A DNA stretch of 64,000 nucleotides from Clostridia bacterium (GTDB lineage Bacteria > Bacillota > Clostridia > Christensenellales > Borkfalkiaceae), in assembly GCA_017468085.1 (NCBI GenBank), contig JAFUJR010000032.1, positions 78,204-142,203 on the forward strand. Direction: 5' to 3'. The notes under the pieces were generated by a model. It had not been told where the DNA came from and searched no databases. It saw only the letters and a list, made by a program, of their open reading frames with translations. The position numbers were made by a program, and so were the translations under genes. Position 1 is the stretch's first letter, and the number at the start of each line of letters is the position of its first letter. Below are positions 1-2,194 of the stretch, piece after piece.

Positions 1-67
1 GGTGATGTCCACCGTCGCCAACGTAGCCGTCCAACATAGCAACTAAGTTATCTACTCTTTGCGACAT
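1..67 (-). CDS. Separate glycyl-radical domain of pyruvate formate-lyase (GrcA/YfiD-like), partial
   Basis: This gene begins at 67 and runs off the left edge; only 22 codons are visible. The visible end, [16 protein letters not shown], resembles the start of the C-terminal glycyl-radical domain of pyruvate formate-lyase, where a DGY motif is followed by GG-H and then LNVNV. It lies 93 bases downstream of a pfl gene that lacks exactly this domain. A clear AAAGGAGAT ribosome site sits 7 bases before the ATG, so it is translated on its own and is not a frameshift remnant. The glycine loop (RVSGYAV in the family) would lie outside the window and was not seen. I infer that it supplies the radical glycine to the neighbouring large subunit. 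The alternative is a GrcA-type repair protein. Confidence 0.7.
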   Translation of the reverse strand, partial: [22 protein letters not shown]

Positions 68-160
68 AATATTATCTCCTTTTCTTTTTTATTATATTCC
101 GAGCGGCTTACGGCGAGTTCCTTTGCCGAAACGCGCCGAAATAGCCGTATGCTTTAAAAA

Positions 161-2194
161 TTAGTCTTCTTTACCAAGCGATGCGGGCATGATGGAGAAG
201 GTGTTGGAAATACCGTCACGAGAATATTCGTAAGGCAATTTTGCAACAGATTCCAAGGACGCCAACGCGCCGTTGCTGTCTCTGCCGTGCATCGGGTTCG
301 CGCCGGGAGCGAGAGGAGTACCTCCTCTTCTGCCGTCGGGAGTGTTACCCGTCTTCTTACCGTATACGACGTTGGACGTGATCGTCAAGATGGACGTCGT
401 AGGAACGCTTTCACGGTAGGTATAGTGGCTCTTAACCTTGCTCATAAACGTCTTCAAAAGCCATACTGCAAGCTCGTCTGCTCTGTCGTCGTTGTTGCCG
501 TATTTAGGGAAGTCGCCTTCGATACGGAAATCCACTACGATGCCGTCTTCGTTACGGATGGGGTAAACCTTCGCGTACTTGATTGCAGACAAGGAGTCAG
601 CCGCGCAGGAAAGACCTGCGATACCCGTCGCAAAGAAGCGGCGAACTTTCGTGTCGTGCAATGCCATTTCGATTGCTTCGTAGCAATATTTGTCGTGCAT
701 ATAGTGGATTACGTTAAGGGTGTTAACGTAGAGTTCAGCAAGCCAAGTCATCATGTTTTCGAACTTCGCGCGAACCTCTTCAAAGTCAAGCGCGTCGTCG
801 CTCGTGATAGGCATAAATTCGGGGGAAACCTGCATGGGTTTGCCCGTCTTTTTGTCTTTCATAAGCTCGTCCTTACCGCCGTTGATTGCGTAAAGCAAGC
901 ACTTAGCAAGGTTTGCTCTTGCGCCGAAGAACTGCATATCCTTACCGACCTTCATACAGCTTACGCAGCAAGCGATACAGTAGTCGTCGCCCATTTCAGG
1001 ACGCATCAAATCGTCGCTTTCGTACTGAATGGAAGAGGTACGAATGGAAATTTCAGCACAGTATCTCTTGAATGCGATGGGCAATCTCTTAGACCAAAGC
1101 ACGGTGAGGTTAGGCTCGGGTGCAGGGCCGAGATTGTCGAGGGTGTGAAGAACGCGGAAGGAGTTCTTGGTTACCAAGGATCTGCCGTCTACGCCCATAC
1201 CACCGATAACTTCGGTTACCCACGTAGGGTCGCCCGAGAAGAGCTCGTTGTATTCCTTCGTTCTCATGAATTTCACGATACGAAGCTTCATGATGAAGTG
1301 ATCCATCAATTCCTGCGCCTGTTCTTCGGTGATGATACCCTTTTGAAGGTCGCGTTCGATATAGATATCGAGGAAGGTGCTGTTTCTACCGATGGACATA
1401 GCCGCGCCGTTCTGGTCCTTAACTGCGCCAAGGTAGCCAAAGTACAACGCTTGGATCGCTTGTTGCGCCGTTTCAGCGGGCTTGGAAATATCGCAGCCGT
1501 AAGAAGCCGCCATTTCCTTAAGACCCTTAAGGGCTTTGATCTGTTCGGAAACTTCTTCACGATCACGTACCTTTTCGGGGGTCATAGCGCCGCTCATAGC
1601 GAGCTTATCTTCTTCTTTCTTTTTGATAAGATAGTCAACGCCGTAAAGCGCTACGCGACGGTAGTCGCCAACGATACGGCCTCTGCCGTAACCGTCGGGC
1701 AAACCGGTCAAGATGTGCGCGGAACGAGCCGCACGCATTTCGGGGGTATATGCGTCGAATACGCCTTCGTTGTGCGTTTTACGGTATTTGGTGAAAATAT
1801 CTTTAACTTCGGGGTCAAGCTCGTAACCGTAGAGGTTAAGCGCGCTTTCGGAAATACGAAGACCGCCGAAGGGTTGCAAGGAACGCTTGAAAGGTTCGTC
1901 CGTTTGCAAACCGACAATTTTTTCTAAATCTTTATCAAGATAACCTGCGCCGTGCGAGGTAAGCGTGGAAACGATTTTCGTATCCGCGTTGAGTACGCCG
2001 CCCGCGTCGCGTTCTTTTTTGGACAGATCGCATACGATTTCCCAAAGTTTCTTCGTTGCCTCCGTTGCGGGAGCAAGGAACGTAGCGTCGCCTTCATACG
2101 GCGTGTAGTTGCGCTGAATGAAATCGCGTACGTCTACTTCGTCGTTGCACCATTTACCGGGAACAAATCCTTCCCAACCTTTGTATTGCATCAT
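161..2194 (-). CDS. pflB: Pyruvate formate-lyase large part, lacking the glycyl-radical domain
   Basis: Pyruvate formate-lyase converts pyruvate and CoA to acetyl-CoA and formate in anaerobic metabolism. The protein has 677 residues, against about 740-760 for the usual enzyme. The active-site cysteine pair is present at about 409-410 ([20 protein letters not shown]). The N-terminal and barrel regions look intact. The protein stops at [11 protein letters not shown], the point where normal enzymes continue into the glycyl-radical domain. A gene beginning with that domain follows 93 bases downstream. The start at 2194 is the first of two ATGs and follows AGGAG by 8 bases. The gene order in transcription is pflA, thioredoxin-like, pfl, radical domain. 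Confidence 0.93.

What the first reader, a model, noticed from the sequence alone, without database searches (positions are those of the whole stretch)
1..2194. Pyruvate formate-lyase split into a core enzyme and a separate glycyl-radical domain
The pfl protein stops after [10 protein letters not shown], where the glycyl-radical domain normally begins. A new gene 93 bases downstream, with its own strong ribosome site, starts with the missing sequence ([16 protein letters not shown]). Free radical-domain proteins (GrcA/YfiD) are known as repair factors for damaged full-length enzymes. Here the large part seems never to carry the domain, so the enzyme would depend on a two-piece assembly. That may allow the damaged radical piece to be replaced.
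Basis: partly seen in the sequence, partly recalled or inferred. Interest (0 to 1): 0.75.

Follow-up and report, generated by a model that had tools for sequence, protein, structure and literature searches.

The report
Two-piece pyruvate formate-lyase with separate radical domain
In this bacterium and many relatives, an enzyme of fermentation that splits pyruvate is encoded as two separate proteins, a large body and a small oxygen-sensitive radical part, so the fragile part could in principle be swapped without remaking the whole enzyme.

Summary
The window's only pyruvate formate-lyase (PFL) core (677 aa) ends where E. coli PFL has residue 678; the missing glycyl-radical domain (77 aa, RVSGYAVNF) is a separate gene 93 nt downstream with its own ribosome site. 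It is neither an error nor unique: all 35 loci from 34 other species of the genus are split, as are 93 of 100 further loci picked by similarity to the domain (four repeat earlier ones), among them Ruminococcus, Lachnospiraceae and Anaeroplasmataceae. Within the genus both pieces are under strong purifying selection. Several genomes, including Ruminococcus bicirculans 80/3, show no fused PFL. A core tree nests four fused forms among the split ones, favouring an old split with re-fusions over about 15 separate splits. Some genomes carry a second, unlinked domain gene, and large viral contigs carry it too, some beside anaerobic ribonucleotide reductase. NCBI has the small protein as GrcA3, and the PDB holds two cores without the domain (38la, 38lb); my literature searches found no description of the arrangement. 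Best reading: an obligate two-subunit PFL with an exchangeable radical subunit. Assembly and exchange are inferred, not shown.

The parts
1..67 (-). grcA3: separate glycyl-radical subunit, first 22 codons; the gene runs on beyond the window edge (77 aa in all, L008:6038-6271 minus)
   Evidence: PF01228 52-106; NF038360 158.9 bits vs 158
68..160 (-). 93-nt intercistronic gap with a predicted RNA hairpin (about 147-103) and the ribosome site AAAAGGAGATAATATT
   Evidence: fold -24.2 kcal/mol, z -4.1 (20 single-base shuffles); 25 of the 34 gaps of the genus that are at least 35 nt long have z < -2
161..2194 (-). pflB core: pyruvate formate-lyase without radical domain, 677 aa, catalytic Cys409-Cys410 kept
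2294..2614 (-). small thioredoxin-like protein, 106 aa; a match to it lies in 48 of the 54 group A loci with more than 1.5 kb held upstream of the core
2618..3340 (-). pflA: radical-SAM PFL-activating enzyme, 240 aa
   Evidence: TIGR02493 305.8 bits vs cut-off 231.75
3425..3454 (-). promoter-like TTGACA-18-TATAAT upstream of pflA (12 of 12 matches)
   Evidence: L008 9658-9629; consensus match only: 5 sites found in the region against 4.5 expected in shuffles

Best explanation
This is a working pyruvate formate-lyase built from two gene products. The core (residues up to 678 in E. coli numbering) supplies most of the barrel and the Cys-Cys active site. The 77-aa GrcA3 supplies the last part of the fold and the radical glycine (Gly52, equal to Gly734). 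The genes lie in the order pflA, thioredoxin-like, core, grcA3 on one strand, probably one operon. GrcA3 docks into the core where the covalent domain would sit, PflA puts the radical on it, and the complex turns pyruvate and CoA into acetyl-CoA and formate. Because the oxygen-labile glycine lies on a cheap separate subunit, a cleaved GrcA3 can be exchanged; in E. coli that rescue needs a special spare part (YfiD), whereas here it would be built into normal assembly. Shown: gene structure, conservation, selection, absence of a fused PFL in several genomes. Inferred: operon, assembly, activation in the complex, exchange.
For: Of 61 loci, 42 are split (the window, 35 of its genus, 5 of its family, 1 of a related family) and 19 fused, two of them (G206, G260) in the window's family. 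Of 100 further loci 93 are split, 7 have no core on the fetched stretch; four repeat loci of the first set. Gap length varies from -38 to 446 nt and its frame is random (39/50/44 of 133), which speaks against read-through, and SD-like 4-mers lie before 133 of 133 small genes. dN/dS 0.05-0.09 for the core (10 pairs) and 0.02-0.08 for grcA3 (same 10 pairs; dN 0 in an 11th). Cys409-Cys410 invariant in 38 of 38 aligned cores; G52 and 30 other positions invariant in 133 GrcA3s. R. bicirculans, G367, G036 and G061 show one core, one GrcA3 and no fused PFL; their other glycyl-radical hits look NrdD-like by length and model range, apart from one borderline hit in R. bicirculans. GrcA3 aligns to E. coli PFL 681-759 and the core to 10-678. 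In PMC8683613 (sections 4 and 5) E. coli PFL 1-695 plus YfiD 61-127, a two-piece enzyme much like this one, took up the radical (2.7 against 17.2 uM for whole PFL) and had kcat 204 against 105 per s. Fused relatives G206, G260 and G599 show no free GrcA3.
Against: No physical or activity data for any natural two-piece pair. In E. coli the two-piece forms with the 1-695 core activated less well: 0.5 uM radical with whole YfiD (32-fold lower than with cPFL) and 2.7 uM with the short one. The MAG is 81.7% complete with 5.4% contamination. Formate production by R. bicirculans did not appear in the passages seen of the one paper opened for it.
Confidence: 0.87

Rival explanations
1. GrcA3 is a repair part like YfiD for another, full-length glycyl-radical enzyme, and the truncated core is a decaying relic.
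For: GrcA3 resembles YfiD over its last 60 residues; G626, G527 and Claveliimonas bilis carry a fused PFL as well; other glycyl-radical enzymes of about 850 aa occur in many genomes of the genus; 27 of the 36 other same-genus genomes were not searched with TIGR01255.
Against: Core dN/dS 0.05-0.09, catalytic residues invariant, no full-length match listed for 38 of 45 genomes searched (a few are fragmentary), and the fused relatives G206, G260 and G599 show no free GrcA3.
Confidence: 0.04
2. The two frames are joined in vivo by read-through, frameshift or splicing, so the enzyme is really one chain.
For: The window's gap is 93 nt, a multiple of three; G675, G676 and G678 show a single stop inside the model match.
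Against: Frames are random across 133 loci (39/50/44), the window's gap holds two more in-frame stops, and the small genes have their own start and an SD-like motif.
Confidence: 0.02
3. Separate pieces are real but neutral: a historical accident with no benefit in repair; exchange of the radical subunit does not happen in cells.
For: Fused forms occur within split clades, so both states seem to work.
Against: Extra unlinked GrcA3 copies in 8 of 12 selected cellular genomes and GrcA3 without core on 7 of 9 viral records searched suggest that the small piece is useful on its own.
Confidence: 0.3
4. Assembly artefact of a metagenome-assembled genome.
For: The MAG has redundant contigs.
Against: Same break in independent genomes, including records titled complete of R. 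bicirculans and Claveliimonas bilis.
Confidence: 0.01

Closest known systems
E. coli PflB, fused PFL (TIGR01255; PDB 1h16)
   Same: Core aligns over 10-678 and GrcA3 over 681-759; Cys pair, glycine loop and PflA partner kept
   Different: Radical domain is a separate polypeptide; break at residues 678/681
YfiD/GrcA spare part (TIGR04365; PDB 6owr) and T4 Y06I
   Same: Free glycyl-radical domain that can complete a PFL lacking its own; last 60 residues align
   Different: YfiD rescues oxygen-cleaved PFL and has a disordered N-terminal half (PMC8683613); GrcA3 is 76-90 aa in the 133 loci, the window's scores 95.3 bits against a cut-off of 170, and its core has no domain to lose
NCBIfam NF038360 autonomous glycyl radical cofactor GrcA3
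   Same: The window's small protein meets the curated cut-off (158.9 vs 158)
   Different: I saw only the model's name, not its curators' notes, so whether they record the truncated partner is unknown to me
PDB 38la_A and 38lb_A, Formate acetyltransferase
   Same: 38la (687 aa) ends at SLGKED like the window's core; 38lb (739 aa) continues after LGK with a stretch like the group B tail and is not among the matches of the radical domain
   Different: Organism, title and paper not seen, nor the last residues of 38lb; whether 38la is natural or a construct is unknown; the only free domain matched in the PDB was YfiD 6owr

Membership tests
Pyruvate formate-lyase (TIGR01255) | Core score over the curated cut-off | tested here: met
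   1072.1 vs 994.2 bits
Pyruvate formate-lyase (TIGR01255) | Adjacent catalytic cysteines (418/419) | tested here: met
   C409, C410 invariant in 38 cores
Pyruvate formate-lyase (TIGR01255) | Glycyl-radical domain on the same chain | tested here: not met
   core ends at model position 662 of 744; domain on a second gene
Pyruvate formate-lyase (TIGR01255) | Dedicated radical-SAM activase nearby | tested here: met
   PflA, TIGR02493 305.8 vs 231.75 bits
Pyruvate formate-lyase (TIGR01255) | Pyruvate cleavage activity | not testable with these tools
   needs enzyme assay
GrcA3 (NF038360) | Whole-protein score over the cut-off | tested here: met
   158.9 vs 158 bits; close relatives score both above and below
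GrcA/YfiD (TIGR04365) | Score over the cut-off and N-terminal 60-residue extension | tested here: not met
   95.3 vs 170 bits, residues 18-77 only
GrcA/YfiD (TIGR04365) | Rescues an oxygen-cleaved full-length PFL | not testable with these tools
   no full-length PFL held in this genome

The most novel reading that the evidence does not exclude
A whole branch of bacterial PFLs runs permanently as a core enzyme with a consumable radical subunit. The split arose once, was undone by re-fusion several times, is backed by extra unlinked subunit genes in some hosts, and is exploited by large viruses that bring their own subunit, in some next to anaerobic ribonucleotide reductase, whose class uses formate as reductant (recalled).
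Probability: 0.35. Interest if true: 0.8.

Novelty: new variant of a known kind. Interest (0 to 1): 0.6.

Why it matters
PFL is a central enzyme of anaerobic fermentation and a textbook case of an enzyme killed by oxygen at its own radical. A naturally two-piece PFL makes the spare-part idea directly testable with wild-type partners: stability of the pair, whether the radical is placed before or after docking, and exchange after oxygen damage. It also affects annotation, since cores without the domain can be taken for broken genes.

Tried and rejected
Read-through or frameshift joining: frames random in 133 loci. Assembly artefact: same break in independent genomes. Full-length PFL elsewhere: only an identical contig overlap. 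Gap hairpin as a conserved sequence element: a hairpin recurs (25 of 34 gaps) but the sequence does not align (27 gaps) and a 30-nt piece of it has no second copy in the window. Domain swapping as the source of the nested fused forms: their radical domains also group with GrcA3, 93/92, not starred (71 columns, weak resolution). Structure prediction, and with it a fold search that would give PDB titles, was not possible.

Literature: searches of the held library (open-licence PMC papers only); none of the titles and abstract starts listed showed a described split PFL. Searches listed 20 of 26 and 20 of 25 papers, one search listed 7 of 9. I read sections 4 and 5 and passages of PMC8683613 and passages only of PMC12288474, PMC5476646, PMC13278490, PMC3561251 and PMC9403272; Kammel and Sawers 2022 only as a reference-list entry.

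Full report
WHAT IS THERE. On the minus strand the window begins inside a small gene and then carries, upstream of it, a PFL core, a thioredoxin-like gene and pflA. The core is 677 aa, ends at SLGKED and matches TIGR01255 to position 662 of 744, over the curated cut-off. The small gene starts at window position 67, 93 nt after the core's stop, and in the contig encodes 77 aa with RVSGYAVNF. It meets the NCBIfam model GrcA3 just over its cut-off. By alignment to the solved E. coli enzyme the core covers residues 10-678 and the small protein 681-759, so together they make up a whole PFL.

GENOME. The window is G000:C23:78204-142203, a 2.06-Mb assembly of 62 contigs, 81.7% complete, 5.4% contaminated. 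Only one kind of PFL is held. A second copy on contig C29 is identical over 9001 bases; the first 14911 bases of C29 equal window 1-14911, so I take it as assembly redundancy. The third glycyl-radical protein is NrdD.

CONSERVATION. Of 36 other genomes of the genus searched, 34 gave 35 loci, all split (six of these cores are cut by contig ends); G003 had no match and G016 only one, NrdD-like by its model range. In all, one search examined 61 loci: 42 split, 19 fused, two of the fused (G206, G260) in the window's family. In the class survey 21 of 391 genomes passed the GrcA3 cut-off, each in a short frame of 78-106 aa, and two more with short frames (G061, G477) lay just under it. One search examined 100 more loci (20 from that survey, 80 named ones), all selected by similarity to GrcA3: 93 split, 7 without a core on the fetched stretch, 0 fused. 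Four of the 100 repeat loci of the first set; the 133 loci with a usable core (of 142) are 129 distinct ones. They include Ruminococcus bicirculans 80/3, Claveliimonas bilis, Lachnoclostridium phytofermentans and MAGs labelled Anaeroplasmataceae, Erysipelotrichaceae, Gastranaerophilales and Atopobiaceae; single MAG labels may be binning errors.

TWO ARCHITECTURES. Group A (the window's, 69 loci): core ending within 8 residues after LG, then grcA3. A PflA match lies upstream in 54 of the 54 loci with more than 1.5 kb held there, a thioredoxin-like match in 48 of them. Group B (64 loci): the core carries a tail of 10-46 residues after LG, acidic (median net 5), then grcA3; a PflA match lies downstream in 39 of the 54 loci with more than 1.5 kb held there, and none was seen upstream. 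56 of the 64 tails hold the motif [VIL][FM].G[DE][LIC] and 23 hold cysteine. The tail's role is unknown; I suggest it guides docking.

DEPENDENCE. TIGR01255 in 45 genomes (chosen among split genomes and the nested fused ones): a full-length match in 7; three of these (G626, G527, Claveliimonas bilis) also have the split pair. The others list only split or fragmentary matches. In R. bicirculans, G036, G061 and G367 the remaining glycyl-radical hits look NrdD-like by length and model range, not tested further; R. bicirculans has one more borderline hit (22.4 bits, cut-off 22.2). So these genomes show no full-length PFL for GrcA3 to repair. L. phytofermentans has further glycyl-radical hits but no fused PFL. 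For C. phytofermentans ISDg a paper lists three pfl genes and counts it among pfl-encoding species (PMC3561251, passages); I did not see its formate column headed.

SELECTION. Against ten relatives of the genus the core has dN/dS 0.05-0.09; against the same ten grcA3 has 0.02-0.08, and dN 0 against an eleventh whose core is partial (Nei-Gojobori, dS up to 1.7 for grcA3, so rough).

HISTORY. On cores cut before the split point, the 42 split rows of a 60-row tree plus four fused rows form one branch (98/93); holding the split rows alone together is rejected (p-AU 2.75e-9), as is group A alone (9.7e-11) and group B alone (0.013) (the groups were tested after a first tree had been seen). The four are G206 and G260, same family as the window, and G599 and G595. 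With equal costs the tree needs 4 changes; if re-fusion is forbidden it needs 15 splits (200 bootstrap trees: 4-6 against 12-20). One caution: all fused linkers shown, nested ones included, have eight residues between LG and the next conserved stretch, which is neat for accidental re-fusions and may mean a strong length constraint or parallel splits. These trees used a simple model (LG+G4), and many forks inside the groups are weak. The 153-row tree left out 18 short or partial rows, and the contig-cut L119 before that.

SPARE COPIES. All seven loci without a core nearby lie in genomes with another GrcA3. Among 12 cellular genomes searched, 8 have a second, unlinked GrcA3 (G679 is fragmentary and unsure); 7 of the 12 were chosen because their locus had no core, so this is not a frequency.

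VIRUSES. A scan of IMG/VR with GrcA3 gave 17 loci, some near-copies of each other. Of 9 records searched whole, 7 (43-333 kb) hold GrcA3 and no core, one holds a linked pair, and one holds GrcA3 plus a core with three in-frame TGA at conserved tryptophans. Of the 17 stretches, 7 have both NrdD and NrdG matches, two of these with YfiD-type proteins, and one more NrdG alone; 9 have neither. One of those 9, L257's record, has an NrdD elsewhere. Viral nature rests mainly on IMG/VR: terminase PF03237 was found in 3 of 15 records, none of the 9 above, and of 20 large proteins scanned from 6 records one looked like a tail protein while others matched phage families of nucleic-acid metabolism. Known enterobacterial phages carry YfiD-like proteins, several annotated beside anaerobic reductase.

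MECHANISM. In E. coli the domain lost to oxygen is replaced by YfiD, which takes the radical only in complex with damaged PFL (PMC8683613). An engineered core of residues 1-695 with YfiD 61-127 is close to the natural pair here: kcat 204 per s against 105 for whole PFL, but radical only 2.7 against 17.2 uM; with whole YfiD 0.5 uM (sections 4 and 5). The natural break lies 17 residues earlier, and GrcA3 brings the stretch NLVxMLDGY, which YfiD does not match; I infer that this stabilises docking. PDB 38la and 38lb suggest that cores of this kind have been solved; I could not see their titles.

VERDICT. Real, functional by the sequence tests made here, obligate in several genomes, widespread, not found described in the papers I could search, but partly catalogued. 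A new variant of a known kind.

Noticed in passing
L251:3243-5273 (viral contig, 73 kb): A PFL core with three in-frame TGA, all at conserved Trp positions, suggesting TGA read as Trp; preceded by NrdD, an NrdG-like stretch and GrcA3.
   Followed up: partly
L253, L254 (viral contigs of 230 and 333 kb): GrcA3 directly beside nrdD and nrdG, in two gene orders.
   Followed up: partly
window 68-160 and gaps of the genus: Strong intercistronic RNA hairpin in 25 of 34 gaps (single-base shuffles) although the sequence is not conserved; may set the ratio of the two subunits.
   Followed up: partly
group B cores, e.g. L226:2103-4181, L193:2336-4453: Recurring acidic tail with a VFxGDLxxD-like motif after the split point, some with Cys clusters (GCCE), in place of the radical domain.
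   Followed up: partly
G000 contigs C23 and C29: Window 1-14911 is repeated at 100% identity at the start of contig C29; I take it as assembly redundancy.
   Followed up: yes
L008:4736-5941 (minus), downstream of grcA3: A metallo-beta-lactamase-fold protein (PF00753; weak match to the ComEC/Rec2 model) follows grcA3; no link to PFL seen.
   Followed up: no
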